This document shows, piece by piece, positions 71 through 14,827 of a stretch of DNA of 64,000 nt; the first letter of the stretch is position 1; each line of letters starts with the position of its first letter. Made by a program: the position numbers and the translations under genes. Source of the stretch: Gammaproteobacteria bacterium (GTDB lineage Bacteria; Pseudomonadota; Gammaproteobacteria; HyVt-429); NCBI GenBank assembly GCA_013152415.1, contig JAADGI010000029.1:1-64000 (forward strand), read 5' to 3'. Below the pieces are notes generated by a model. That model saw nothing but the letters and a program-made list of their open reading frames with translations. It was not told the DNA's origin and did not search any database.

Positions 71-1704
71 AACTATCCTGACACAGGGGGCTTAGTAAGT
101 CCCGCCGGTCCGCCTGTCACTATAAAAAGAGAACCTTCCGTCGCAACGGACTCTCGTCCCTCAGTAAGTCACGCCCCTATGGTGAAAAGTACCAACACTA
201 TTGGAGCGCTGTCGCAACGGACTCTCGTCCCTCAGTAAGTCACGCCCTTAAAAGGAGAAAGAAAATGCTGATGAAAAGAACGTCGCAACGGACTCTCGTC
301 CCTTAGTAAGTCCCGCCCCCGACTCCGTGACGAGTGGCAATTGGGGCGTGTCGCAACGGACTCTCGTCCCTTAGTAAGTCCCGCCTACAAAATGCCGCCA
401 TCAAAATGTTCAACCCTCGGTCGCAACGGACTCTCGTCCCTTAGTAAGTCCCGCCCATATCTTTGCCTCCATATGTGCCAGCTATTGCAGTCGCAACGGA
501 CTCTCGTCCCTTAGTAAGTCCCGCCTTCTTTTCGCAGTTCATTCGTGAAAGAGTAGTAGAGTCGCAACGGACTCTCGTCCCTTAGTAAGTCCCGCCCTAG
601 AAGAAGTGCTTCCCAGAAACTAGCGGACTTAGTCGCAACGGACTCTCGTCCCTTAGTAAGTCCCGCCTTTAGGAGGGCATATCATGAAGGTAATTAAAGG
701 GTCGCAACGGACTCTCGTCCCTTAGTAAGTCCCGCCAGAAGTTACGCAAAGGCCAGTATTTTTACTGCGGTCGCAACGGACTCTCGTCCCTTAGTAAGTC
801 CCGCCAACAATACTGTCCTCATACATTCCCCTATGTCCGTCGCAACGGACTCTCGTCCCTTAGTAAGTCCCGCCTCCTCGAGCATGACGTACCTGGCCTT
901 GGGCAGCAGTCGCAACGGACTCTCGTCCCTTAGTAAGTCCCGCCACAAATGAGAGTCTTCATTATCGTAATTGGTGGGTCGCAACGGACTCTCGTCCCTT
1001 AGTAAGTCCCGCCGCTCGTCGGTTTCGTAATCGCTCCTATTGTGAGTGTCGCAACGGACTCTCGTCCCTTAGTAAGTCCCGCCGGAACGTTCAAAGTACA
1101 TTTAGCACCATGAAGTAGGTCGCAACGGACTCTCGTCCCTTAGTAAGTCCCGCCTGCTCTAACTATCATTGCGTTTGGCGCGGAAGTCGCAACGGACTCT
1201 CGTCCCTTAGTAAGTCCCGCCGCAAAGGACGGGCAGTTGTTCTCGTCTCATGAGTCGCAACGGACTCTCGTCCCTTAGTAAGTCCCGCCAATAATCTATT
1301 GCAAGGAGTCCTTTGATGAAAGTCGCAACGGACTCTCGTCCCTTAGTAAGTCCCGCCAATATTATGTACTAGACAATATTCTTAGATAAAAGTCGCAACG
1401 GACTCTCGTCCCTTAGTAAGTCCCGCCATTGTTGCCGGCCCGAAGTGCGTGCCGCTTTGGTCGCAACGGACTCTCGTCCCTTAGTAAGTCCCGCCCCTGT
1501 AAAGCACTCAGAAAGATGTCTCTTGATGGTCGCAACGGACTCTCGTCCCTTAGTAAGTCCCGCCGAAACTATCGAAATCATTGATTTTCTACAGGAGAGT
1601 CGCAACGGACTCTCGTCCCTTAGTAAGTCCCGCCGATTCCTGAAAAGATAATCAAAATCGCTTTTAGTGTCGCAACGGACTCTCGTCCCTTAGTAAGTCC
1701 CGCC
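71..1704 (-). CRISPR. CRISPR array, 24 repeats of 36 bp, 23 spacers
   Basis: The repeat on the plus strand is GTCGCAACGGACTCTCGTCC followed by CTTAGTAAGTCCCGCC. Repeats start at about 71 (degenerate), 140, 211, 282, 350, 420, 490, 561, 632, 701, 770, 839, 909, 978, 1048, 1119, 1186, 1254, 1322, 1392, 1460, 1529, 1599 and 1669; spacers are about 31-35 bp. Three observations place the leader on the right and transcription on the minus strand. First, repeats decay at the left end: the repeat at 71 has lost its first half, and those at 140 and 211 share CTCAG and CACGCC changes. Second, the right end abuts cas2. Third, on the minus strand the repeat folds as GGAC-GAGA-GTCC, a GNRA-loop hairpin, leaving the 8-nt tail GTTGCGAC, the usual length of a Cas6-generated 5' handle. 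The Cas6 domain of the RT-Cas1 fusion is the likely processing enzyme. The short ORFs listed here are repeat artefacts. Confidence 0.98.
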
Positions 1705-1865
1705 AGGGCACCGCTAAGTACCTGTTTTCGGGGTTGTTCTGCCCCGTATTTGGCGGATCGAACGGACCACTCTCTTTGTGCAGTGTTCTCATGGCGTTTC
1801 TCACTTGCAACCCCTTGATAGTAAACCTATGGCGTGATGTTGTCACCTGCCCAGACCTCACTCCT
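1705..1865 (-). promoter_or_regulatory. Probable CRISPR leader
   Basis: This 161-bp non-coding stretch lies between the cas2 stop codon and the newest-end repeat, on the side where repeats are perfect. It holds a small dyad (CGGGG at 1729-1733, CCCCG at 1742-1746). I could not assign a convincing -35/-10 pair. The array may be read from here or as an extension of the cas operon transcript, because the cas genes point into it. Confidence 0.6.
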
Positions 1866-2153
1866 TTACACCACGATGACCGCTGGATAGTCCATTATTT
1901 CTGACCCATCCAGGCTGAAGGACTCGCGCAGTGTGTTGCCGTTCATGCGATAGAAGCGGATGTTGGCGGGGTCCTCGTAGCGTCGGCACAGGCCATTTAA
2001 GCGCCCACGCAGTCGCCGCATCTGGGTGGTGTTGCGCATGGCCAGTTCAAAGACGGAGTGTTGTACGCGAAAACCATGCCTCATTAACTCCTTTACCACC
2101 CGGTAGCGCAGGCGGTCGTGATGGACATCGAAACAGGCCAAGTAGTATTGCAT
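1866..2153 (-). CDS. cas2: CRISPR-associated endoribonuclease-like protein Cas2
   Basis: The 95-residue protein has the Cas2 ferredoxin-like fold signature. It opens with YYLACFDVHHDRLRYRV, placing the conserved Asp at the end of strand 1 (residue 9), and continues with GFRVQHSVFE. In the family, a Cas2 dimer bridges two Cas1 dimers during spacer integration. It starts 3 bp after the stop of the Cas6-RT-Cas1 gene and is the last protein gene of the operon before the leader and array. Length is normal for the family (about 90-100 residues). Confidence 0.95.
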   Translation of the reverse strand: MQYYLACFDVHHDRLRYRVVKELMRHGFRVQHSVFELAMRNTTQMRRLRGRLNGLCRRYEDPANIRFYRMNGNTLRESFSLDGSEIMDYPAVIVV

Positions 2154-2156
2154 GGT

Positions 2157-5078
2157 TTATCTCTCCCTATAAGGCCGGAATGCACTTTCTTCCCGCAACC
2201 ATGCGATCAACGAACGATTCTGCCGGTGCAGGTGGCCGTGCAGGCCCCGTGGACGGTCGTCGCCCCAGGCTGTGACCCCGGCAACAAAGCGTTCTTGCAA
2301 CACGCGCAGGTAATCGCGCAAGGCGGTCCGTTCCATTTCGCAACGCCCACCGCGCATGGAGAAGTTGTCGGGGCTAATCATGCGCTTGCGGATGATGTGC
2401 AAGGCGGTGCGCTCTACCAAGTGGCGGAAAGGCTCCATCATGTCCGAGGCCAAGGCGGCATGACCGGCACGGCGCTGATGGTAAACGCCCAGGGCCGACA
2501 GCAGACCGTCTACGCGCAGAGCGGCATCGGTGTGGGCGTAGAGAATGCTGTAGCCAAGATCAAGCAGGACGTTGAATGGGTCGAGGGCGGGGTGCCGTTG
2601 ACGCCGTTTAAAGTTCCATTCAGACCCAAGAACGGTACGGATACCGGCGAAAAACTCACGGGTCGCCTCGCCCTCTACGCCGTTCAACTCGGCGATGTCG
2701 GCGACCTCCAGGGCCTTGTCCGCAGCCCGCTTGAGCCGGGGACGGGCGGCCTGGGCGTCTAATGGCAGGCGGCGCAACACCTCGCGAAGATTGCGGATGC
2801 GGGCGGCCACCAGTTCCCGGGCCGGTTCCAGTCCGTGGGCTGTCTCCAGCAAGCGGTCTAATTGTAAGCGCCACAGGGCCAACCGGCCTGCCTCGTGGGC
2901 GGCGGAGGTCGCCACACCAAGGTACTCACCCGAACGGCGGACGAAATGTACCGGCACGCCACGGCGCATGGCCCCGCGCAGTGCCGGGGTGGTGATATGC
3001 TGCGGCCCGACCAGAACCAGGGACTCGAGGGTGTCCACAGGACGGTCCAGAAGTATCTCGCCCTCCCGGGAGACCCGCAGATGACCCTCGCTGATAGCGA
3101 CTGTCGATGGCTTGCCGGTAACGGCCACCAGGGCGCCCACCTCCTCTACCCCAACCAGCGTGGGTGCTGCCGGTGTGTGCCCCACCAGGCGCTCTACAAG
3201 TTGCTCCACGCGTTCCGCCTTCTCCACCGGGTTGAGTGCCAAACGGGTCTCACAATTGTGCCTGTTTGGAAGGGGCTTGGCTGTGGTTGGCTGTGCCGGT
3301 GGATCATCCGTGACTTCGCCTTGTTTGAAGTACAGACCGAGATAACGAAAGCCCTGCTCAAAATCGGTCTCGGCAGTTTTGTCTTCGCGCAACATCAGCT
3401 TTAGCTCGGCCAGGGAACGGCGTACTTCGGCCTCGGCGTCTTCCAGGCGGGTCGCGTCTTTACAGAGCACGACAAAGTCGTCGGCATAGCGGATCATCTT
3501 GAAGTTTTCCGCCGCCAGGTCGCGGTCGAAATCGTCCAGGACAAGATTTGACAGCAGGGGGCTGAGCGGTGACCCCTGTGGCAACCCACGTAAACGGGTG
3601 AGTTCACGGCCCTCGGCGATCAGCGGGGCGCGCATCCAGGCAAGACAATGGTCCACGACCGGGTCATGCCGGTACAGGGCGCGCAGCCGCACTTCGATGT
3701 CGTGCCAATCGACACTGGTAAAAAAATCCTCAATGTCGGACTCGAAGACGTAACAATAGCCCGCCTCCCAGGCCCGGCGAATGGCCTCGGCGGCACTGTG
3801 GCGCGAGTGGCCCCGACGGTAGCCGTGGCTGTTGCGGTGAAAGTATTTGTTGAGCGCGGGGGCGAGCACCTGGACCACGGCACGTTGGGCAACGCGCTCG
3901 GCAAAGAGGGGCACCGCCAACATGCGCTGGCCACCGTTCTTTTTGGGCAGGGATCGCAGATGCAGCGAATCGACCTGGCTGTCTCCCGGCCGCAGCCGTG
4001 CCGTGAGGTCCTCTTTGTGCTTGTCCGTCAGCAGGCGTGGTTCCCGTTTGTTACGGGTGGCGGCGATGCGCCAAGCCTGCTCCAGATTATAGTCGAGGGC
4101 GGCCCGTTGCAGCAGCGAGGCAGCGGGTCTCAAGAGGGGCACGGCGTTGGCGGTCTCACCGTCGACCGTCTCCAACCGGTAGCGGCCCAGACCGAAGGCG
4201 GGTTGTTCACCCATGCCCAGGTGCTGGCCCAACACCAGGCAACCGATATGAAATGTGGACAGGTCAGGCAACGGTGGGAACTGCAGTTCTCCCAACAGAC
4301 CGCTCAGGTGCTTCCAACGGGCACCGCTCTTGTAGCTGTCCTCGACCCAAAAGACGCGGCATTCGCTAAAGTTACAAGCAGCGGCCTTTGGGGTCGGCTT
4401 GGGTTCCTCATGGCCATGGTGCTGGATCAACGCGCGCAGGGCCTCGACATTACGGTGCAACAAAAAATCTGCATCCAGGTCGCCGGGGTTACTGCAATAG
4501 CGGGGCTTGCCGTCGGTCGACTCCCGTTGCTCCCGTACCGCTGCGGGCAGCAACATGCGCAGGGGCGAGGTCCAGCGCCATACCAGTGGGTGTTCATGAA
4601 TATAGGCCTGCCACAGGTTCAGTTCGTGTTGGAAGCGCTCCCCGTCGTAGGAAATGAACCGTTCCGGATCGAAGTCGTCGCCCGTGGCCAGCCGATCACG
4701 AATAGACACCAGCCGCAGATTACCGCGAAAGGGATCATTGCGCCGTTTGTCCCGCTGGGCGGAGGCAGGTAAACCCTCCAGTTTTTGAATAAGCACCCGC
4801 AACAACGGCAGACCAGGCTCGAACGCGGTGATGCCGAACCGGTAACGCTCACCGGAACGGTAAAACACCCGCCCGTCCTCAGCGCTCTCCACCAACAACT
4901 TACCGGCATAACTCACCCCCCGGGCGTCAATCAGGGTACGGATAAAGCCCGTCAACTGCCCCCGGTGAAAAAACGGTAGACGGGTGGACTCGGTAAACTC
5001 AAGCGTGATCTCGAGGCAATAGAAGGGAAGGATTTTGGGGAGCCAGTCGGTCCGAAGTTTCGCGCTGTTGCCTGACAT
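2157..5078 (-). CDS. Cas6-reverse transcriptase-Cas1 fusion protein
   Basis: One continuous frame of about 973 residues holds three domains. Residues 1 to about 310 are a Cas6-like RAMP region ending in the glycine-rich stretch GMGEQPAFGLGRYRLE. Residues about 320-590 are a reverse transcriptase related to group II intron RTs, with ESDIEDFF, GLPQGSPLSPLLSNL and the active-site YADD near residue 530. Residues about 615-973 are Cas1, with NGVEGEATREFF (catalytic Glu near 800) and RAGHAALASDMMEPFR (catalytic His and acidic residues near 870-880). All catalytic motifs look intact. Characterised Cas6-RT-Cas1 fusions, such as that of Marinomonas mediterranea, process crRNA and acquire spacers from RNA. 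I chose ATG at 5078, which overlaps the upstream stop as TGATG; the track's TTG one codon earlier is possible. Confidence 0.96.
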   Translation of the reverse strand: MSGNSAKLRTDWLPKILPFYCLEITLEFTESTRLPFFHRGQLTGFIRTLIDARGVSYAGKLLVESAEDGRVFYRSGERYRFGITAFEPGLPLLRVLIQKLEGLPASAQRDKRRNDPFRGNLRLVSIRDRLATGDDFDPERFISYDGERFQHELNLWQAYIHEHPLVWRWTSPLRMLLPAAVREQRESTDGKPRYCSNPGDLDADFLLHRNVEALRALIQHHGHEEPKPTPKAAACNFSECRVFWVEDSYKSGARWKHLSGLLGELQFPPLPDLSTFHIGCLVLGQHLGMGEQPAFGLGRYRLETVDGETANAVPLLRPAASLLQRAALDYNLEQAWRIAATRNKREPRLLTDKHKEDLTARLRPGDSQVDSLHLRSLPKKNGGQRMLAVPLFAERVAQRAVVQVLAPALNKYFHRNSHGYRRGHSRHSAAEAIRRAWEAGYCYVFESDIEDFFTSVDWHDIEVRLRALYRHDPVVDHCLAWMRAPLIAEGRELTRLRGLPQGSPLSPLLSNLVLDDFDRDLAAENFKMIRYADDFVVLCKDATRLEDAEAEVRRSLAELKLMLREDKTAETDFEQGFRYLGLYFKQGEVTDDPPAQPTTAKPLPNRHNCETRLALNPVEKAERVEQLVERLVGHTPAAPTLVGVEEVGALVAVTGKPSTVAISEGHLRVSREGEILLDRPVDTLESLVLVGPQHITTPALRGAMRRGVPVHFVRRSGEYLGVATSAAHEAGRLALWRLQLDRLLETAHGLEPARELVAARIRNLREVLRRLPLDAQAARPRLKRAADKALEVADIAELNGVEGEATREFFAGIRTVLGSEWNFKRRQRHPALDPFNVLLDLGYSILYAHTDAALRVDGLLSALGVYHQRRAGHAALASDMMEPFRHLVERTALHIIRKRMISPDNFSMRGGRCEMERTALRDYLRVLQERFVAGVTAWGDDRPRGLHGHLHRQNRSLIAWLREESAFRPYRER

Positions 5079-8000
5079 CAATCGGGAGAATCGATTTCTG
5101 AGATAGGCTGTATCAGGGTAATTCTCTTTTTGACTTCAATGTAGAGAACTTCAATGTTTAGCGTAGCGTCCTTATCTCTCACAAACTCTTTCGCTTTGCC
5201 TGTTAATTCTTTCTCTTTTCCACCGATCTTCCATTTTTCCTCTGTAGAATCAAATGAAAGCCATCCGATGTTAGCGCCCCCTCTGCCTTGATGGAATGAG
5301 AAATAAGAAGGAACACAACCATCCGAATACAATTTCTCCGGGTTAGGCAGTTTATTATTAACCACATGCCAAGCGAAGAGCTCACGTTCAGACCAGGCAC
5401 GTATTAGAGGATCGTTACTGTACAAGGCATAACGCTGTGCCTTTGTCAGCGGATAGGTAATTAACTCATTTTCATCTCGTTGTTTCCCGATCTCTTGCAA
5501 GCATCGCAGTGTGCCGGGATCAACCAGTCTGCCGAGGTCATTGGGGTCTGATATAAAATCGCTGATAGATTTATCTTCCATGGCGACACCGTTTTCCTGT
5601 GTAAAACAGTCCTTTATATTTCGCTCTTTGATGCACTTTACCTCGACCCTCACAGACCCTAAGCCCAGGGGCTTGCCCAAGCCCAGTTTGTGCAGAAACT
5701 CACCTCCCGGCGCGATAGCGGTCAGCAGCAGCTTCATTTCATGATCGTTCAGGTTGTAGTAATGGATAGCAAACGTGAACGCCTGATTTCTTACAATTGG
5801 TTGGCATTTGGTTTTCTGTCCCTTGTTGTTCCCGATATCCAACGTTGCATAGCTATTCGGACTGACATCGTCCGGGCATTGACGCAGGTATTCCTTGCGG
5901 CCATTGGGAACAAGATGGCTACCTTCCTTGTGAAAATAAAGGTATTCCGATGGTGGTTCTGGCGAGGATAGAATCTTGATCGTCACTTGTTCTCTGCGCT
6001 CTGGATCATTGTTATTATCAATGAATTTCGCATCGGTAAAACGCAGACGGGAAGCAAGGTTCCTTTGCTTGCCTGGGGCGTTACTCGTATCTTCTTCCAC
6101 CACGCCCAGCAGCACCTCCGCTGGCGTCAGCCAATCCACACCACGTTTGATGCTGCCCCAAGGCAACAAGGCTTTACTTACGAAATTAAACGCGTCATGG
6201 GATGTTAAATAGTAAAAGGGTTTTCGCCAGATGGATGAGGGGCTAATTTCCGAGACTATAGCGTTGTCCGTTTTGTAGAAAATAGTTTTGCCCACCAGTT
6301 TTTCCATTGCAGGTTTTTCTATTATGCCTGGTGTTTTCAGGATATTTTCATATGTGGCAATGACATCAGGCGGCACATCGAGATCATTTGCTTCTCCTTC
6401 TGCCTGGATTTGCCATTGCTCCCCGTTTTTTATGAGCACCCCCTTACGCGTTAATCGTTCATTTTGAGATTTTCGTACACTGAAATAACGATTCTCCAAC
6501 ACCCGCAAACTGGACTGGCTCAGCGTTTCGATGACATTACCGATCATGCCCCGCAGGCTGTTGGCGGGGAAGGCGACGTAACCTGCGTGGCGGTAGGCAT
6601 GAACCGTGGTTTCTTTCTCCTTATCCGGTTGTTCATGCTCATTGCCCACCAGGGTGTCGGTGACGGTTGTCAATGTGCAAGCAATTATTCCGGTATGCCG
6701 TTCCGGGATATAGAGATCGTGGCGAATTCCTTTTTCTTTGATGTCATCATACGCCGGGCAATTACCGTCATTCCATAGTGCCTTGACCGGCACGAAGGCG
6801 TAGGGGTTCAGTTGTTTGCCATTGGCCCGATTGATCGTGGGTGTTCCATCCTCCACGACCGAAGGAATTTTATGTTCCGGCTCGCCACCGCAATCATCTG
6901 CTGTGGTCTTCTTTGTGGCTTCCTGTTTACTATTTTTGTAGTCTTCATCGATTGTCTGCTTGAGTGCCTCAACCCACTCAGAAGGATTATTGGCCACTTC
7001 TGGCCCGAATCCATTTGAGATTACAGTGGCGAGATCGATCTTTTTGCCCTTCTCGTCCTTTTCGACAAGTTTTAACAAACCATAGCCCTTGGCCTTACCC
7101 CAACCGACCCAGAAATGGCCATCGGTGATCTCGCGCAGGGCAAGGTAGAGCAGGCCACACTGCCAATCCTCCCATTTATCCTTTTTGTGGAGAATCAGGC
7201 CGCCACCCTCAAGCTTGCTCCCCGGTGGGATGGCGCATGCACAATAGAGCGCCCCGTCCTTCACACCCCCGGTAAAACGGTCGATGGCAATGAAGAACTG
7301 CGTGTGGACATCGTCACCCTTATAGACGGGGGCCTTCCATTGGACCCGGCTTGCCTGGTTTGTGTCACCAAAAATCTTGCTAACCAACGGGTTGGCCTCT
7401 TCGACCGCCTTGTTGGGATCGTCGATTCGATTGTTGATCAGAGTGGCGGCAATGCGGGTAGCGATGTCACGCAAGGCGCCGGTGAGGCTTTCCGGCGGCA
7501 AAGTCGCCTTCTGGTCTGCATTTCGGTAACACACCAAATCGGGTAGACCCTGATCCTCTTTCTCATGGTTTCCCTTCCGTTTCTTTGGTGCCTGGCCCGG
7601 ATCGTGGACGAGGACGGGCTGCTGGGTGATGAGTGTTAATGGAACGTCCAGCAACTGTTTTTCAATAGAAGCAATACTTACATCAACAGAGTCACCGAAT
7701 AACACGTCGATATCTCTCTTATCATTATCCTTCACAAACCAGTTATGGATTGCGTCGGTGGAGATGCTCCGGTAACTGCATTTCTCAACCTCGAGCACAC
7801 CCCAGGACTTGGTCTTTTTCGCACCCAGGCCGTGGGTCAGATCGCCATCCCAACGTTTCAGAGCCTCAATAAGACCGTCGATTTCGCTCTCATCCACCCA
7901 GTCCATTTCCAGTTCGGCGGTAAAGCGCGCACCCTGCGGATAGACCTCGTGATAAAATAGGCCCTTCCCGTCCTGGGTACCCGTCTCTGGTCTGATTTTG

Positions 8001-8443
8001 ATACCGCTGCGCAGCCCCGTCATGCGATCCGGATGCCAATAACTGACTAGCGTGGGGTCGCAACCATCATAACGCGCATCCATGACCCGGACGCAGCCTC
8101 CCCGGTGTTCTCCGGAGCCGATATCGTCCGGGCCAAAAAGTTCTTTTCGGCAATCGTTATTGCGCGTCAATCCTCGGCGCAGGAATCCACGCAAGGTGCT
8201 GCCAGGCAGGACGAGCCGCTCCGACGGTCGTGTGTAACAGCATTGGTATGTGCCATTTTCTTTCAGATTTTCTTTGCTCGCAATATCTCTTTCCGATCCA
8301 TAAATTTTGCAACGTTCCGCTTCGATCTTGACCGCCTCACGCCCGTCGCCGACATGAACATCGGTCTTACAAACGAGTTCGACAATGAACTGCACACGAT
8401 AATATCGTCTCTCGTGCTTTTCGCTGGTTCTGGTCTCGGGCAT
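5078..8443 (-). CDS. Triple Cas7-like RAMP fusion, type III effector backbone
   Basis: The protein of about 1121 residues carries three successive RAMP/Cas7-like modules. Module 1 (about 20-250) has HVGDG, LPGSTLRGFLRRG, ELFG and GGCVRVMDA, as in Csm3/Cmr4. Module 2 (about 265-500) has LPPESLTGALRD, a long FFIAIDRFTGGVKDGALY strand and GWGKAKGYGLLKL. Module 3 (about 570-980) has HTGIIACTLTTVTDTLVG and FPANSLRGMIGNVIETLS, resembling the TIGR03986 RAMP family, plus a C-terminal tail of about 150 residues of unclear fold. Such modules coat the crRNA and cut target RNA. The start is set at ATG 8443, not 8500, because GAGGAG sits 7 nt upstream and this removes a 53-bp overlap with the preceding gene. 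Catalytic aspartates could not be assigned by eye. Confidence 0.85.
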   Translation of the reverse strand: MPETRTSEKHERRYYRVQFIVELVCKTDVHVGDGREAVKIEAERCKIYGSERDIASKENLKENGTYQCCYTRPSERLVLPGSTLRGFLRRGLTRNNDCRKELFGPDDIGSGEHRGGCVRVMDARYDGCDPTLVSYWHPDRMTGLRSGIKIRPETGTQDGKGLFYHEVYPQGARFTAELEMDWVDESEIDGLIEALKRWDGDLTHGLGAKKTKSWGVLEVEKCSYRSISTDAIHNWFVKDNDKRDIDVLFGDSVDVSIASIEKQLLDVPLTLITQQPVLVHDPGQAPKKRKGNHEKEDQGLPDLVCYRNADQKATLPPESLTGALRDIATRIAATLINNRIDDPNKAVEEANPLVSKIFGDTNQASRVQWKAPVYKGDDVHTQFFIAIDRFTGGVKDGALYCACAIPPGSKLEGGGLILHKKDKWEDWQCGLLYLALREITDGHFWVGWGKAKGYGLLKLVEKDEKGKKIDLATVISNGFGPEVANNPSEWVEALKQTIDEDYKNSKQEATKKTTADDCGGEPEHKIPSVVEDGTPTINRANGKQLNPYAFVPVKALWNDGNCPAYDDIKEKGIRHDLYIPERHTGIIACTLTTVTDTLVGNEHEQPDKEKETTVHAYRHAGYVAFPANSLRGMIGNVIETLSQSSLRVLENRYFSVRKSQNERLTRKGVLIKNGEQWQIQAEGEANDLDVPPDVIATYENILKTPGIIEKPAMEKLVGKTIFYKTDNAIVSEISPSSIWRKPFYYLTSHDAFNFVSKALLPWGSIKRGVDWLTPAEVLLGVVEEDTSNAPGKQRNLASRLRFTDAKFIDNNNDPERREQVTIKILSSPEPPSEYLYFHKEGSHLVPNGRKEYLRQCPDDVSPNSYATLDIGNNKGQKTKCQPIVRNQAFTFAIHYYNLNDHEMKLLLTAIAPGGEFLHKLGLGKPLGLGSVRVEVKCIKERNIKDCFTQENGVAMEDKSISDFISDPNDLGRLVDPGTLRCLQEIGKQRDENELITYPLTKAQRYALYSNDPLIRAWSERELFAWHVVNNKLPNPEKLYSDGCVPSYFSFHQGRGGANIGWLSFDSTEEKWKIGGKEKELTGKAKEFVRDKDATLNIEVLYIEVKKRITLIQPISEIDSPD

Positions 8444-8447
8444 CCTG

Positions 8448-10301
8448 TTACTCCTCAATCGGTGGTTGCCAGCTTTCATGTAGCTCGAGATTGACGGCAA
8501 TCTCGCCCCAACCGTTCTCCCTGATCCAGGGATTCAGTTCCCAGGGTTTGGGTCTCGAATCTTCATCTTCCATACCAGAGGCATCCGTTACCTCTGAATC
8601 TTTATCTTTCATGCCGGGGGCACCCATGACTTGAGGCAGACCGAGACGCTGCCATTCCCTGATCTTCTCTTCGGCCTTTTCTCTGTCTTTGATATCGAAA
8701 ACAAACACGCTGCCGGCATCGGTAAATACCTGTGTCTGGTAGAGTGGTTTTGAGCATTTACCGTAACGTTTCCACCAATAGTCGCCGCCCATGAGTGTCT
8801 GCCGGGCGTAGTAATGACTGAGCCTGAGGCTTTCATTAGATAGTTCATCCCAGATGCATCGGTAGCATTTTAATAGCTCACCCCCACCACCCGTTTGCGG
8901 GATATCCTGGATATCCTCCACATTAAACAAACGGGCCGGGGTTTGCAGCGCGATCACTATTTGATTTTTCTCGATGGGACGTTCCTGAACCGCAAAATCG
9001 AATCCACCCGATACGATCTCGACAATAGCGGGTGTTTTGGTCTTGCCCAATGGCAGGAACGACTGGCCTTTTGCAATCTCAGCAAGAATCTTGAGAAATT
9101 CTCTGACATCGGAATCAGTCACGCCGTTGCCGTATTTGGGGAAATCGATATTGCACAGCCAGACCTGCTCGGGGTCCGGCTTGACCATCTCGACCGCGAA
9201 CAGACCTTTGTCCTCCGCTGCACGTTTATTCAGATCGTGTTTATTACGCACGACCAACATACGCTCGATCTCACCCGGCCAACCGAGTTCACTACGGGCG
9301 CTGTTGAGATGCCTTTGCTTCCAGTCAGGCTGGAAGGCGGGTGCCACCTGTTTGATCAGCCCAGGCTCCTCCATATATGCAACATCACGCAGGTCACCAC
9401 CGGCGAATACCAACGACAGGGGAGGCACCACTGGGCGACAGGTGGCCTGGTGGTTTACAGACAAGGCATGAGTGACCCGCACAGCGTCGAAAAGAGGTTT
9501 GATTTGTTGCCATTGGGATTGTTTTTTCGCAACACGGGCAATCACCGCCTTAATCGCCGCACCCGGGATCGAATCGCTGGAAACGAGGGCATTACTCTTC
9601 TTCGGCCCGTGAAGGGCAAAACAAAATGGCCATAGGGGCCGCAAGCGCAACCCTACCCGGCCAGTTTGAATAATGTGCGCGATGGTCTCTTTGTCCAATT
9701 CACGACTGGCGCTGGTAAGCACTGCAGGTGCGGCGGTATCAGTGATGTTCACTTCATGCATCCTGCCCAATCCAACCCCCTTTTCCCCACCCAGTGCCGG
9801 TGTCATGAGCAGTCCCTTACGAATCCATTCCTTCAATTCTTTATCGGGCTTGTCATCCAACAACAGTATGTGTCCGGAAAAGATTAACGGCTTTTCCGGG
9901 GCATTATCACCACTGCCGCGCTCCTTGTTGTCCAACACCTTTGCAACCTGCAGCATCTTGCTTCCCACCGACCGGGTCCCGTCGTCAATTTTGATGCGGA
10001 TGCGCTCATCCGGTACCGTCTCCCCGTCGAGCGTCCAGAAGGGCTCGAAGATCAGACAACCGCGCTGATCGAGAGTATCGTCACTCTCTCCCAGCCACTT
10101 TTTGATATCGACTGTGGCCCCCAGCTTGTTCAGGAGCATCCAATTCTCTTTGAGATTGCCCCGTATCAAGCTTCCCGGCAGCGCGTAGCGTCCCTGAGGG
10201 TCACGGAACATATCGGCATCAACACCAAACGGAAGCGCGCCACTCTGCCGACTGATCACCGGCGGCAGGATCGATAACGTTACGCGGTACCACATGCTCA
10301 T
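8448..10301 (-). CDS. Two-domain RAMP protein (Cas7-like plus Cas5/Csx10-like)
   Basis: This 617-residue protein has an N-terminal RAMP module (about 1-210) with YALPGSLIRGNLKENW, FEPFW and the glycine-rich GGEKGVGLGRMHEV. A second module (about 215-600) opens with GRVGLRLRPLWPFCF, has SIPGAAIKAVIARVAKK and ends in an Asp/Glu-rich linker and WGEIAVNLELHESW. The architecture resembles Csx10 and related type III-D proteins, which cap the crRNA 5' handle. Exact family membership is inferred from these motifs only. Its ATG overlaps the stop of the cas10-like gene (ATGA) and is preceded by AAGGGG; its stop lies 4 bp before the triple-RAMP start, so the genes are translationally coupled. Confidence 0.75.
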   Translation of the reverse strand: MSMWYRVTLSILPPVISRQSGALPFGVDADMFRDPQGRYALPGSLIRGNLKENWMLLNKLGATVDIKKWLGESDDTLDQRGCLIFEPFWTLDGETVPDERIRIKIDDGTRSVGSKMLQVAKVLDNKERGSGDNAPEKPLIFSGHILLLDDKPDKELKEWIRKGLLMTPALGGEKGVGLGRMHEVNITDTAAPAVLTSASRELDKETIAHIIQTGRVGLRLRPLWPFCFALHGPKKSNALVSSDSIPGAAIKAVIARVAKKQSQWQQIKPLFDAVRVTHALSVNHQATCRPVVPPLSLVFAGGDLRDVAYMEEPGLIKQVAPAFQPDWKQRHLNSARSELGWPGEIERMLVVRNKHDLNKRAAEDKGLFAVEMVKPDPEQVWLCNIDFPKYGNGVTDSDVREFLKILAEIAKGQSFLPLGKTKTPAIVEIVSGGFDFAVQERPIEKNQIVIALQTPARLFNVEDIQDIPQTGGGGELLKCYRCIWDELSNESLRLSHYYARQTLMGGDYWWKRYGKCSKPLYQTQVFTDAGSVFVFDIKDREKAEEKIREWQRLGLPQVMGAPGMKDKDSEVTDASGMEDEDSRPKPWELNPWIRENGWGEIAVNLELHESWQPPIEE

Positions 10302-11947
10302 GGTTTTCCCCTTTTAAGGGGATTCTGGAGGTACTCCCAATATTCCAACGCAAACAACCATGGCTGTAATGCACGAATAGCACCGTAATACTCTTCGTGC
10401 TCCTGCTGCACCGAACTGGACAAGGCCGAGTCCTGAAGAGATGCTTTGTCGATTAGCGGAAAAATATCGCTTACAATCTTTCCAATATCTTCAATCTTTT
10501 CAATCTCTCTGGAATCCCCAACCTCTTCCATACACGTCATTTTTGGCACCTTGGTGGCGGTTCTTTCATAGCTGTTGTAAAACTTCACCACGTCCCGCCG
10601 AAATGCACCATGGATGTTGATCCCGGCAATCTTTTCTGAAAAACTGTCGAGCTTATACATATCCTTGTTATCCTTGTCATCCTCCATATTTTCTGCATAT
10701 AGCGGTTTGAACGGCAAGATATGGGCGCCGCATTTTTCGTAACGGCGTTTCCAGTGGCGGCTGATACGTTCGGTAGGGTAGTCCTCCGATTCGAGCAGAA
10801 GCGGGAAATAGAGATCAACGTTGCGCGAAAACATCTTGGCGTGTTCGGCCAGCTCCCGGGCCAACCTGGAAACCCGTTGAATCGGAGTATTGTGGGAACA
10901 GAAGACAAGCCCACCCGCGTGGGTGAGGGAGACACCGTTGATTTCCAACCCTTCCATTTCTTGGTAGAAAAGATGCAGTGTCGCAAACCCCGCCCACGCA
11001 GGAACAACCAATAGAATCTCATCACCTCCCCAAAGCAGCACTTCCAGCCGTAATGCTTCACCATTTTTCATGGTCTCCTTTGACTTAAAACTATTCACTA
11101 ACGCCTTAAGAAGGCCGGTACGTTTCTCTCTCAGTTTATTGTCAAACTCCATGACTTTATTCAGGCTGAGTTCAGCCTGGTGCTTGTTGAAATGGTTTCC
11201 GTCGAAGTAGAGCACCGCGATCTTGTCCTTGCAGGCGGCCACCTCCGGCGACTCTTTTAAACTCCATTCGCTCAGATCTTTCAAATCTTTTGTGAATTTG
11301 TTTACATCCGGGGGGCAACCCATTTCCCGATTGATAAAACTATTTTTTTGATCGGCACCGTATTGATAACGAGCATGGACCGATCTAGATAGACATTCTT
11401 CTTTTTTATCTATTTTTTTCTTGCTCGACGCTGGGCGGCACCCTTCTAGGAAGCAGGCAGGAGTCTTTTCCGGGGAATCGTCATGTGCCGCCTCAAGATC
11501 ACCAAAATATATCGACGGTATACGCATTTGCTGCAATCGGTTCTTGGCAAGAAGCACCCGACGAGAAACTACCTCGGCTGTCGACGGTTCCATTTCCACC
11601 GCCGAAACAACAAAACCAATTTGTGGCAGCACTTTTCCCAGATTTTCACCCAACGCTGACTTGCCGGAACCATTTAGATGGCCCCGTAGCGTCCCCTCCA
11701 GTTCGGTTTTATTATTCTCATTCGCACGAAATCGGAACAAACCCGTCGAACCACCACTTCGGATCTCCTCAACCTCAGAAATACCTTTAGTGGATTTGAT
11801 CACTTTGTTGACCGCATGCACCGCCTCACGCATGGCAATGCTACCTCCACGGCGTACACTTAGCTGGCCGGTATCTTCAATCACCGAATCAATATTTACG
11901 GCCTCGACTTGTAGCAACCAAGCTGGTTCTGGAATCGTCAAGCACAT
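10298..11947 (-). CDS. Short Cas10-like palm-domain protein (GGDE)
   Basis: The 549-residue protein contains a nucleotide-cyclase/polymerase-type palm. IAVLYFDGNHFN carries the first metal-binding Asp near residue 248, and LLWGGDEILLVVP gives a GGDE turn near 306-309, with the spacing expected of Cas10 and GGDEF enzymes. A Cys-rich piece near 165-190 (ACFLEGC then EEC) may bind zinc. It is shorter than typical Cas10 (about 750-1000 residues) and I see no N-terminal HD nuclease motif, so target DNA cleavage by HD is probably absent. GGDE replaces the common GGDD, so cyclic oligoadenylate synthesis is possible but unproven. It lies 3 bp after the membrane protein gene and overlaps the Cas7-Cas5-like gene. 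Confidence 0.8.
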   Translation of the reverse strand: MCLTIPEPAWLLQVEAVNIDSVIEDTGQLSVRRGGSIAMREAVHAVNKVIKSTKGISEVEEIRSGGSTGLFRFRANENNKTELEGTLRGHLNGSGKSALGENLGKVLPQIGFVVSAVEMEPSTAEVVSRRVLLAKNRLQQMRIPSIYFGDLEAAHDDSPEKTPACFLEGCRPASSKKKIDKKEECLSRSVHARYQYGADQKNSFINREMGCPPDVNKFTKDLKDLSEWSLKESPEVAACKDKIAVLYFDGNHFNKHQAELSLNKVMEFDNKLREKRTGLLKALVNSFKSKETMKNGEALRLEVLLWGGDEILLVVPAWAGFATLHLFYQEMEGLEINGVSLTHAGGLVFCSHNTPIQRVSRLARELAEHAKMFSRNVDLYFPLLLESEDYPTERISRHWKRRYEKCGAHILPFKPLYAENMEDDKDNKDMYKLDSFSEKIAGINIHGAFRRDVVKFYNSYERTATKVPKMTCMEEVGDSREIEKIEDIGKIVSDIFPLIDKASLQDSALSSSVQQEHEEYYGAIRALQPWLFALEYWEYLQNPLKRGKP

Positions 11948-11950
11948 GGT

Positions 11951-14746
11951 TCAATCCTCATATCGTTTGTCCAGGCCGGTACAACGTTCAGGCAGGAACA
12001 GTTTCTTAAATAGAATCAAGCCAGCCAGGCTCACTATGACAAACAGTAACGTGGTTATCCCGATCAGCAATTTGCTATCAAAACCGACTAACCCGAGGAC
12101 GACGAAACAAACAAGAATTATGACTTGATACAGGGTCAGGAACAAAAGGTAGTGCAGCTTGATATTCCCCAGCCCAGGCATTCGCATAAGGTAGTGAAGC
12201 TTGGCATTCCCCAGCCCAAGCATTCGTATAAAGAGAAATATTACCGTAGTTGTCAGCAGCATTGAGAAAACAAACTGGACCATGAACGCCAGTGCGTTGG
12301 TAATGGGCTCCAGTGAACACACTGCCGGTTTGAACCAAGACAGCACATCCCGCAAAACCAGAAATGCTTGCTTGGTGAGGGATATGAGGTAGGCCGCAAC
12401 CGGCATACCGATAATCTCTTTTATCGCATCCACGCTCAGCAGACCAACAAAAACTGCGGCAAATGTAATGACCAAACCTACACAGGTCAGGCGATCCCGC
12501 ACTTTGCACTTTTCATAGTCTTCTGTCTTTTCGATCTCCTCCTTGACGATGTTATGCGACTCTTTAAACCCCATCGCCCGGCTCTGGAGCTCATAAATTT
12601 CCTTACCTTGCTGCTGCTCGGTGACCTCATGGAACCAATAGCGATTGGTAAATTCCATGAATTCGTCACGCAACTTACCAAGGATGTCATGTTTAGTTTT
12701 GCCTTCACGCGACCCACCCAACTCCTGCTTTGGGGTTTTCGACCCTTCTTTGTCAGTGGAAGAGGGGGTGGCTTCGCTGATCTTGAATTCATATCCGCTG
12801 AATAGTGATTGGTAAAACAGATTCAACACCGTCATCCGACCATAAATGTGTGGGACATGGATCGGGGCAATCCGCTCGCGCGCCTCCCTGGAGAGCCCCA
12901 TGTAAACATGCGAATGATCGGTGAAACCGTGTAAGCTTCCGAGCTCCTCCCAACGCCGATAAACCTGGTACTTTTGTTGCTCCTGGCAAAATTGCCGACT
13001 GTAGGCAAACTCTCCCGGACTCGTATCCTTTTGTCGATCAACATGCAAGGCGATATGGTGTATACGATTGAACTCCTGTTTTGCCCATTGATTCGATGGA
13101 ACAGGCCCTGCCAATGCATAGGCAACATTGACAAACATCCTGTCATTGCGGGATTCATCCATCAATCGTTCTCTTGCTCGATCAATGTCCTCTGAGTCCT
13201 GATAAAATTTCGAAAGCAGGTGCGTGATGACGGAATTGAAATCCTCGATCTTAAATGACGTCGCGGGTGGATCACTTGAAAGGTCCTTAATCTGCATATC
13301 GCAGATTTTTTTCTCCTTCCACTGCTCGAGAAAGCTGGGATAGAGGATGCGCACCATTTGTGTAAAGTTGAGCCATCTTTCCAACTGCACACATTCTGGA
13401 TTTTGTTTACGTTCAAATAAATCGTGCCACCAGTTGGTCTGATCCGCACATTTGGGATCATCCCAGGAATTGTTTACCGATACGGGCATTTCAATCCGGA
13501 ATGCCAGGAGATCATGTTTTAAATGGTGACGATACAAGGAAACATCTTTAACCTCGGCACCATCAAATGGTGGTTTGCATTGGGTATCAGCATCACACTG
13601 GATGAGCTTTAGTGTGATATTATCTAATGATTCATGGGGTAACGAATATTCCTCTATGGATTTGATACCGCTTTCGGGACTCTCACCCATATGAAAAATC
13701 TGTTCCCGCAGCCGTGGTGAGAAATAGCGCACAACCTGGGCCTTGATCGCATCATCCTTGTATTCTTCATAGGGCCGAATGCCTTCCGGCTCCAATTTTG
13801 GGAACGCATATTTTCCGATTGGCGTATTCTTGTACTCTTTCGCAACACCTTTAGTGCCTGGCGCAATACCTTTGATTTCTGGGCGTTTATCACCGACATA
13901 CCCTAGCGAACAATAGAAGGTGGCGGAATAATAGCGCAGGGGACGGCCGGACCAGAGTACGGTAGCAAGCATATCGCTCACCAAATCATTGACACTCCCA
14001 GGGTCGTAGCTTAAGAAGTTGATCTCAAATTCCAACGTATACCGCCCCAGCCTAAAAAACATCAGGCACCGTGAGCGCCAATACTCGGATACAAATAACG
14101 TCGAAAAATAATCTACAAAACGTGGCGCACCGATAAACGTAACGCGCTTTACTTTGTTCAGATCATCCACATCATTGCTGCCTACAAAACCAAGCAGTAA
14201 GGCTTGTTTCAGACGGGGTAACTCTCCCCTGGCAAGACACTCTGTATAACCATCCCAACCATCACGGTTGGGACGCAGGGTGAGTAGTTTCTTCTCTTCC
14301 CACTCGCCAAGTGTCAATTTGGTCAGCTTCAGGTCGTCCAGATCGACGTACGGGACCTTCTCAATGGAACCAAATTGTTTGCAAAAAAACTCCTCGGATT
14401 TCTCCCAGTCCTGTCCCCGTTCAGCAAGCCCCAGCCAATAGTCGCGCTCAAAGGCAGCCAGGGTCTGCTGCTCTTCGGATAAGGTCTTGCCCAACGCGAC
14501 GGCTGCACGCTCCAGTAGTCCTGCGCCCTGCTTTCGCAGATAACGGCGAAGGTGGCATTTTGGGTGATCGATGTTGGATAAGACGCCGGGGAGAAGAGTT
14601 TCACCGGCTATCTCAAATTTAGGTGTGTCTGCTTCCAGAAATGTGGCGCGGGGTGGTTCACCTGTATCGAGGAATTTAATTGATTCACGGATCGCCTCGT
14701 ACAACCGGCTTCCCTTGTTCTTCTGTTGTTCTGATTCTCCCCCCAT
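11951..14746 (-). CDS. Large CRISPR-linked protein with C-terminal membrane domain, function unknown
   Basis: I do not recognise this protein of about 931 residues. About 750 residues are soluble, with a charged linker (about 665-695) and a segment TNRYWFHEVTEQQQGKEIYE followed by a probable coiled coil (about 700-745). Then come four or five hydrophobic segments to the C terminus. This layout, a large cytosolic part, a helical stalk and terminal membrane helices, recalls CorA-type channels, some of which accompany type III CRISPR loci. I see no GMN selectivity motif, so this is only an analogy. It is the first gene of the cas operon and is tightly linked to the cas10-like gene, suggesting an effector or membrane anchor. 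ATG 14746 is preferred because AGGAG lies 7 nt upstream; the track starts 7 codons earlier at GTG. Confidence 0.6.
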   Translation of the reverse strand: MGGESEQQKNKGSRLYEAIRESIKFLDTGEPPRATFLEADTPKFEIAGETLLPGVLSNIDHPKCHLRRYLRKQGAGLLERAAVALGKTLSEEQQTLAAFERDYWLGLAERGQDWEKSEEFFCKQFGSIEKVPYVDLDDLKLTKLTLGEWEEKKLLTLRPNRDGWDGYTECLARGELPRLKQALLLGFVGSNDVDDLNKVKRVTFIGAPRFVDYFSTLFVSEYWRSRCLMFFRLGRYTLEFEINFLSYDPGSVNDLVSDMLATVLWSGRPLRYYSATFYCSLGYVGDKRPEIKGIAPGTKGVAKEYKNTPIGKYAFPKLEPEGIRPYEEYKDDAIKAQVVRYFSPRLREQIFHMGESPESGIKSIEEYSLPHESLDNITLKLIQCDADTQCKPPFDGAEVKDVSLYRHHLKHDLLAFRIEMPVSVNNSWDDPKCADQTNWWHDLFERKQNPECVQLERWLNFTQMVRILYPSFLEQWKEKKICDMQIKDLSSDPPATSFKIEDFNSVITHLLSKFYQDSEDIDRARERLMDESRNDRMFVNVAYALAGPVPSNQWAKQEFNRIHHIALHVDRQKDTSPGEFAYSRQFCQEQQKYQVYRRWEELGSLHGFTDHSHVYMGLSREARERIAPIHVPHIYGRMTVLNLFYQSLFSGYEFKISEATPSSTDKEGSKTPKQELGGSREGKTKHDILGKLRDEFMEFTNRYWFHEVTEQQQGKEIYELQSRAMGFKESHNIVKEEIEKTEDYEKCKVRDRLTCVGLVITFAAVFVGLLSVDAIKEIIGMPVAAYLISLTKQAFLVLRDVLSWFKPAVCSLEPITNALAFMVQFVFSMLLTTTVIFLFIRMLGLGNAKLHYLMRMPGLGNIKLHYLLFLTLYQVIILVCFVVLGLVGFDSKLLIGITTLLFVIVSLAGLILFKKLFLPERCTGLDKRYED
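12147..12230 (-). repeat. 42-bp tandem duplication inside the membrane protein gene
   Basis: Two adjacent 42-bp units (12147-12188 and 12189-12230) differ at a few positions. They encode the repeated peptide GLGNxKLHYL between two membrane segments. The frame is kept, adding 14 residues to a loop. Confidence 0.9.
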
Positions 14747-14827
14747 CCCTATGCTCCTGTCCATCACCAGTCTCTGCGGGCGTCACTTCTGGCTCCTCGC
14801 TCCGACCATACAATACAACGATTGTCA

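What the first reader, a model, noticed from the sequence alone, without database searches (positions are those of the whole stretch)
247..1321. Spacers carrying translation start sites with identical 7-nt spacing
Seen: AAGGAGAAAGAAAATG (spacer 247-281), AGGAGGGCATATCATG (668-700) and AAGGAGTCCTTTGATG (1290-1321) on the plus strand, and TGGAGGCAAAGATATG on the minus strand of spacer 456-489. Each has a Shine-Dalgarno hexamer, 7 nt, then ATG. Spacer 945-977 also starts like a gene (ATGAGAGTCTTC...). With minus-strand transcription, the first three crRNAs would be antisense to mRNA starts. Inferred: the RT-Cas1 machinery may sample mRNA 5' regions, or selection favours blocking them.
Basis: partly seen in the sequence, partly recalled or inferred. 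Interest (0 to 1): 0.78.

Follow-up and report, generated by a model that had tools for sequence, protein, structure and literature searches.

The report
CRISPR memories of foreign gene starts
A bacterial immune memory built by a reverse-transcriptase CRISPR system holds several short sequences that look like the starts of foreign genes, nearly all in the direction needed to recognise the messenger RNA; related systems show the same tendency, but the effect is modest and the source genes are unknown.

Summary
Four of 22 complete spacers carry a Shine-Dalgarno hexamer, 7 nt and ATG, against about 0.3-0.4 expected. The array belongs to a type III-D-like system with a Cas6-RT-Cas1 fusion. Trailer degeneration, repeat 3' end and cas2-side leader show that crRNAs are read from the minus strand, so three of the four are antisense to an apparent mRNA start. 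The identical 7-nt gap is ordinary: 7 is the modal gap in phages, and two of the four shift by one when aligned to the anti-SD.

I tested the idea on 185 spacers from independent RT-Cas1 arrays (gamma/zeta, Vibrio). SD-ATG motifs lay 8:0 on the crRNA-complementary strand. Start-like spacers were 9.2%, against 4.1% of random sense fragments of phages, 4.0% of non-RT type III spacers and about 3% per strand of 1,814 non-RT spacers. That is a roughly two-fold excess (p 0.004-0.025, thresholds chosen after looking).

No convincing protospacer was found for the window. One spacer shares 28 contiguous nt with phage contigs exactly at a gene start, which is suggestive only.

Orientation is best explained by selection for mRNA targeting. 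Whether capture or selection causes the start excess is unresolved.

The parts
140..1704 (-). CRISPR array, 23 repeats of 36 nt and 22 complete spacers (31-35 nt); crRNA strand is minus; the repeats at 140 and 211 are degenerate, so the trailer end is at low coordinates
   Evidence: 2 mismatches each in the repeats at 140 and 211; repeat 3' end on minus strand GTTGCGAC resembles GTTGAGAC/GTTAGGAC of Vibrio RT-Cas1 repeats
107..139 (-). Probable oldest spacer, bounded by a truncated repeat (about 91-106)
   Evidence: sequence
1705..1865 (-). Leader between cas2 and the first repeat; weak minus-strand promoter-like match at 1846-1818
   Evidence: position; (consensus match only, 2 found vs 1.2 by chance)
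247..281 (+). Spacer with SD-7-ATG (target sense); 28 contiguous nt match IMG/VR contigs at the start of a T5orf172-domain gene
456..489 (-). Spacer with SD-7-ATG on the crRNA strand; plus strand is also an open frame, so this one may be coincidence
668..700 (+). Spacer with SD-7-ATG (target sense), start score 2.49, the highest of the 210 gamma/zeta/Vibrio RT-linked spacers
945..977 (+). Spacer beginning ACAAATG with open frame MRVFIIVIGG; SD would lie outside the spacer
   Evidence: score 0.64
1290..1321 (+). Spacer with SD-7-ATG (target sense), score 2.29
1565..1598 (+). Spacer ending in CAGGAGA: possible SD with the start codon cut off
   Evidence: score -0.08, so not supported by the model
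1866..2153 (-). cas2
   Evidence: PF09827 1.9e-13; TIGR01573
2157..5081 (-). Cas6-RT-Cas1 fusion, 974 aa, RT motif YADD at aa 532
   Evidence: 7kft Cas6-RT-Cas1 7.7e-125 over aa 17-962; MMB-1 Cas6 6dd5 over aa 7-308; RVT_1 and Cas1; motif
5078..8500 (-). Cas7-like multi-domain RAMP (TIGR03986 / Csm3-type fusion)
   Evidence: TIGR03986 over cut-off
8448..10301 (-). Csm4/Cas5-like RAMP
   Evidence: PDLC01408 1.3e-34
10298..11947 (-). Cas10, palm motif GGDE
   Evidence: PDLC01418 5e-24
11951..14767 (-). CorA-like membrane accessory protein
   Evidence: PDLC01174 6.6e-69

Best explanation
This is an active-looking type III-D-like CRISPR locus with a Cas6-RT-Cas1 adaptation protein. Supported here by sequence evidence: crRNAs are read from the minus strand; several spacers look like translation-initiation regions (SD + start codon) of genes not found in the host genome; in this and related RT-Cas1 arrays such spacers lie almost always so that the crRNA is complementary to the mRNA; they are about twice as frequent as random sampling of phage mRNA would give. 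Inferred: RT-Cas1/Cas2 captures transcripts (and DNA) of invaders broadly; a type III effector works only when the crRNA pairs with transcript, so selection keeps antisense spacers and discards the rest, which explains the strand bias. The excess of initiation regions is then added either by selection (5'-proximal, weakly structured, first-transcribed target sites are best) or by capture (RNA fragments around start codons are more available). I favour selection plus accessibility over a dedicated start-sampling mechanism.
For: Motifs and strand. Leader/trailer polarity: degenerate repeats at the low end, leader on the cas2 side, same polarity in Vibrio arrays such as L165. Independent RT arrays, 185 spacers: SD-ATG 8 sense: 0 antisense, from eight different loci (two-sided p=0.008); 8 against 2.7 expected from sense phage fragments (p=0.0066). 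Start score above 1: 17/185 sense, 2/185 anti; phage random sense 49/1200 (p=0.004); non-RT type III 9/226 sense, 7/226 anti. Paired sense-vs-anti score p=1.5e-6. Own I-F array 0/48. Cas6-RT-Cas1 identity. One mapped protospacer of a Vibrio RT array matches the coding strand, 34/38, in the interior of a plasmid gene. Type III strand bias by selection is documented in Thermus (PMC7515739); transcription-dependent interference and slight intrinsic orientation are documented for RT-Cas1 (PMC5576922).
Against: The two-fold start excess depends on scoring choices: significant at thresholds 0.5 and 1, not at 1.5; the score distribution as a whole does not differ from random sense phage fragments (Mann-Whitney p=0.40). 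Simple motif counts in independent RT arrays against non-RT arrays on either strand are not significant (8/185 vs 44/1814, p=0.10). Cyanobacterial RT arrays show sense bias but no start excess (3.9%), though their SD use may differ. No convincing protospacer was located for the window spacers, so 'gene start' rests on sequence resemblance. A part of the window signal is one crRNA-sense motif that selection would not explain.
Confidence: 0.6

Rival explanations
1. Capture bias: RT-Cas1/Cas2 preferentially takes up RNA fragments around start codons (for example pieces protected by initiating ribosomes, or 5'-end decay products), so native arrays are enriched for initiation regions before any selection.
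For: Start codon sits at a median of 20.5 nt into start-like RT spacers vs 15 for phage random windows (KS p=0.07), so these spacers mostly include the full RBS, like an initiation footprint. RT spacer ends are A-rich (last three positions A 36% vs 29% inside, p=4e-5), in line with 3'-dA tailing of RNA reported in PMC11014452.
Against: Marinomonas RT-Cas1 spacers were uniformly distributed along genes (PMC11014452; intergenic spacers excluded). Offsets are spread from -1 to 35, without a sharp footprint. A-richness is seen at both ends, so it is no clean tail signature.
Confidence: 0.2
2. Chance plus composition: four hits in one array were noticed because the reader looked for patterns; sense orientation makes SD-like purine-rich strings more likely.
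For: Post-hoc choice of array and motif; moderate p-values; spacer 247-281 is A-rich and finds chance-like matches elsewhere, also at a tauD gene start in a Rhizobium plasmid.
Against: Independent arrays repeat the direction (8:0) and the excess; the score uses each spacer's own composition as background.
Confidence: 0.2
3. Spacers come mostly from early phage regions with many short genes, which raises the number of start codons per kb without any preference for starts.
For: Protective type III spacers in Thermus targeted early genes (PMC7515739).
Against: Random sense windows in regions of short early genes score only 3.6-6.4% (ICP1, KVP40, lambda, AD45), below 9.2-9.5% in RT arrays, though the upper end comes close.
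Confidence: 0.2
4. crRNAs aimed at start sites act as antisense translation blockers of the target or of host genes (regulation rather than immunity).
For: Antisense to SD-ATG in three window spacers.
Against: No spacer matches its own genome outside the array at E<=1; type III effectors act by transcript binding and Cas10 activation, so blocking is not needed.
Confidence: 0.03

Closest known systems
Cas6-RT-Cas1 type III adaptation systems (Thiomicrospira 7KFT/7KFU; Marinomonas mediterranea MMB-1 III-B; Vibrio vulnificus III-D)
   Same: Same Cas6-RT-Cas1 domain order over nearly the full length, RT YADD motif, cas2 next to it, type III effector genes, array beside the adaptation genes
   Different: 36-nt repeat of its own; Cas10 with GGDE; CorA-like accessory gene; best identity to relatives found only 42%. 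Start-site excess not reported for Marinomonas spacers (PMC11014452)
Type III-A adaptation in Streptococcus thermophilus (Zhang et al. 2021, as reviewed in PMC9048733)
   Same: Spacers enriched near start codons, strand-biased
   Different: No RT; enrichment 10-50 bp downstream of start codons on the coding strand, measured on newly acquired host spacers, explained there by displaced ssDNA; here SD-spanning spacers in native arrays
Thermus thermophilus type III spacers selected by phage (PMC7515739)
   Same: Strong bias for spacers complementary to phage transcripts
   Different: No RT; bias shown to arise by selection; positional bias to one early region rather than to start codons

Membership tests
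RT-Cas1 (Cas6-RT-Cas1) type III CRISPR-Cas | Cas6, RT and Cas1 domains in one protein | tested here: met
   7kft aligned over aa 17-962; RVT_1 379-584 and Cas1 654-929
RT-Cas1 (Cas6-RT-Cas1) type III CRISPR-Cas | Intact RT catalytic motif (YxDD) | tested here: met
   YADD at aa 532
RT-Cas1 (Cas6-RT-Cas1) type III CRISPR-Cas | cas2 and a CRISPR array beside RT-cas1 | tested here: met
RT-Cas1 (Cas6-RT-Cas1) type III CRISPR-Cas | Spacers acquired from RNA | not testable with these tools
   A-rich spacer ends are only weakly suggestive
Type III CRISPR-Cas | Cas10 with palm domain and Cas5/Cas7 RAMP subunits | tested here: met
   (GGDE motif)
Subtype III-D | Csx10 (Cas5) and III-D-type Cas7 fusions | tested here: inconclusive
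   PADLOC III-D models match; TIGR03986 over cut-off, Csx10 model far below cut-off
Start-site-targeting spacer array (hypothesis) | Protospacers mapped at start codons on the coding strand | tested here: inconclusive
   No certain protospacer; 28-nt match of 247-281 at a phage gene start

The most novel reading that the evidence does not exclude
Cas6-RT-Cas1 systems preferentially store translation-initiation regions of invader mRNAs, for example fragments shielded by initiating ribosomes, so that native RT-linked arrays are a record of start sites of transcripts being translated at infection.
Probability: 0.18. Interest if true: 0.75.

Novelty: new member of a known kind. Interest (0 to 1): 0.45.

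Why it matters
The origin of spacers in RT-linked arrays is an open question: Silas et al. 2017 could trace almost none (PMC5513706), and the Vibrio RT spacers here found no phage match either. A preference for translation-initiation regions on the mRNA strand would be a signature of RNA origin or of selection that can be read from arrays without knowing the protospacer. It is directly testable on published acquisition datasets and on larger array collections.

Tried and rejected
Spacers against INPHARED phages, PLSDB plasmids and the own genome: no convincing protospacer. Exact 20-27 nt patterns of five window spacers in IMG/VR: nothing for 456, 668 and 945; one 20-nt match for 1290 with only 23/32 overall (not a protospacer); for 247 a 28-nt contiguous match in five related contigs, kept as suggestive only because a Rhizobium plasmid gene start matches it in as many positions (28/35). 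The Staphylococcus phage and Enterococcus hits of the same spacer lie inside ribonucleotide reductase genes (22-nt exact runs) and were judged chance. 87 Vibrio RT spacers against phages: none at E<=0.5, but 38 Vibrio I-F spacers gave none either, so this says nothing about RT. RT-Cas1 relatives in IMG/VR: none. Identical 7-nt spacing as a special feature: rejected. Early-short-gene explanation: insufficient alone. The open-frame test of orientation was uninformative.

Full report
WHAT IS THERE. The window begins with a CRISPR array at 140-1704: 23 repeats of 36 nt (GTCGCAACGGACTCTCGTCCCTTAGTAAGTCCCGCC on the plus strand) and 22 complete spacers of 31-35 nt. A truncated repeat (about 91-106) bounds one more at 107-139. 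The repeats at 140 and 211 carry two changes each, as expected of a trailer end; the other end faces cas2. Reading from the cas2 side, the crRNA strand is minus, with a repeat 3' end of GTTGCGAC. Repeats of RT-Cas1 loci in Vibrionaceae end in GTTGAGAC, GTTAGGAC and the like, with degenerate repeats also at the opposite end. Behind the array, all on the minus strand, lie cas2, a Cas6-RT-Cas1 fusion (7kft E 7.7e-125 over aa 17-962; YADD), a multi-domain Cas7-type RAMP (TIGR03986), a Csm4/Cas5-like RAMP, Cas10 (GGDE) and a CorA-like protein. This is a type III-D-like, RT-linked system. The same genome has a second short array of the same repeat (3 spacers, G000:C16) and a type I-F system with a 48-spacer array, which serves as a control from the same host.

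THE OBSERVATION. The four SD-7-ATG spacers and the start-like spacer 945-977 are exactly as described. Three of the four lie on the strand complementary to the crRNA, as needed if the target is an mRNA; one (456-489) lies on the crRNA strand, and its other strand is an open frame too, so it may be coincidence. Under dinucleotide shuffling 0.25 hits are expected. Random 34-mers on the sense strand of five annotated phage genomes carry the loose motif in 1.47% and the strict one in 0.75%, so 0.2-0.4 would be expected in 25 spacers, with 3 seen in sense (p=0.006 and 0.0008). 1,814 spacers of non-RT systems of Pseudomonadota carry it in 2.4%/1.3% on either strand; the host's own I-F array in 0 of 48. 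Because the pattern was found by eye, these p-values overstate the case. The identical gap of 7 is unremarkable: 7 is the commonest gap between such hexamers and ATG in phage sense strands (11 of 42), and aligned to the anti-SD the four gaps are 6, 7, 6, 7.

INDEPENDENT TEST. I collected RT-Cas1 loci by protein search of genome contigs, Pseudomonadota genomes, Vibrionaceae genomes and plasmids, extracted arrays, oriented them by repeat 3' end and by leader or trailer position, and applied the same motif definitions as before. In 185 spacers from gamma-, zetaproteobacterial and Vibrio arrays, the loose motif occurs 8 times on the crRNA-complementary strand and never on the other, once in each of eight different loci; 2.7 would be expected in random sense phage fragments (p=0.0066). 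The strict motif gives 5 against 1.4 (p=0.013).

A position-weight model of phage gene starts, which also credits partial overlaps, gives scores above 1 to 17/185 sense and 2/185 antisense spacers, against 49/1200 random sense phage fragments (p=0.004). Oriented non-RT type III spacers give 9/226 sense and 7/226 antisense (p=0.025 against RT). Cyanobacterial RT arrays show sense bias (10:3 of 255) but no excess (3.9%). The whole sense-versus-antisense score difference is strong (p=1.5e-6 in the independent set) and also present, more weakly, in non-RT type III (p=0.0006). So the robust part is orientation. The start excess is about two-fold, moderate in significance, and no longer significant at the stricter threshold 1.5.

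PROTOSPACERS. None was found for the window in INPHARED, PLSDB or the own genome. In IMG/VR, spacer 247-281 shares 28 contiguous nucleotides with five related phage contigs, with mismatches only at the two ends. The match sits at the RBS and ATG of a 191-aa T5orf172-domain gene just after the ribonucleotide reductase gene, in the same register. A Rhizobium plasmid gene start matches the same spacer in 28 of 35 positions, also in register. I therefore take this as support that 247-281 is a gene-start sequence, not as an identified target. One Vibrio RT spacer (L165) maps at 34/38 to the coding strand inside a gene of a V. nigripulchritudo plasmid: right strand, not a start.

HOW IT PROBABLY WORKS. 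Type III effectors need a crRNA complementary to transcript. In Thermus, strand bias of phage spacers arises by selection of survivors (PMC7515739); in Marinomonas, RT-Cas1 itself orients spacers only slightly (PMC5576922) and samples genes uniformly (PMC11014452; spacers between annotated genes were left out of that count). The simplest account is broad capture of invader transcripts by RT-Cas1/Cas2, followed by selection for mRNA-complementary spacers, which gives the orientation. The extra weight on initiation regions could come from selection (first-transcribed, accessible sites) or from capture (abundant RNA fragments around start codons). Start codons in start-like RT spacers sit a little deeper than in phage random windows (median 20.5 vs 15, p=0.07), so the RBS is mostly complete; this leans toward an RBS-centred effect but is not significant. 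Spacer ends are A-rich in RT arrays, compatible with 3'-dA tailing of RNA, yet at both ends. Early phage regions with short genes raise the background to at most 6.4% and do not fully explain 9%.

VERDICT. Observation confirmed; interpretation partly supported. The locus is a new member of a known kind. The start-site tendency in RT-linked arrays is a modest, testable statistical signal and not yet a demonstrated mechanism.

Noticed in passing
G000:C16:208647-208884 (L032:18648-18884): Second short array of the same repeat family at a contig end, with degenerate and one truncated repeat; all three spacers begin with AT-rich xxTAAA- or ATAAA-like starts (ATAAAAC, CGTAAAC, CTTAAAC).
   Followed up: partly
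G000:C8:63018-65925 (L157): Type I-F array with 48 spacers in the same genome, with I-F-like Cas1 nearby (75729-76529); none of its spacers carries an SD-ATG motif.
   Followed up: yes
window 12146-12231: 42-nt direct duplication (88% match, no indels) inside the CorA-like gene near its C-terminus.
   Followed up: no
window 10298-11947: Short Cas10 (549 aa) with GGDE in place of GGDD and no obvious HD domain, beside a CorA-like protein whose GMN-like loop may read GMP.
   Followed up: no
RT-linked arrays pooled (210 spacers): Spacer ends are A-rich and C-poor (last three positions A 36%, C 13%; inside A 29%, C 20%), not seen in 1,814 non-RT spacers.
   Followed up: partly
L184:1501-1538 (Vibrio nigripulchritudo plasmid pVNTG2): 34/38 match to a spacer of the Vibrio RT-Cas1 array L165, on the coding strand inside a hypothetical gene: one of the rare traceable RT-linked spacers.
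   Followed up: partly
window 211-193, minus strand: Terminator-like hairpin with a T-rich tail within the trailer-end spacer 176-210; may be chance (3 found, 2.1 expected).
   Followed up: no
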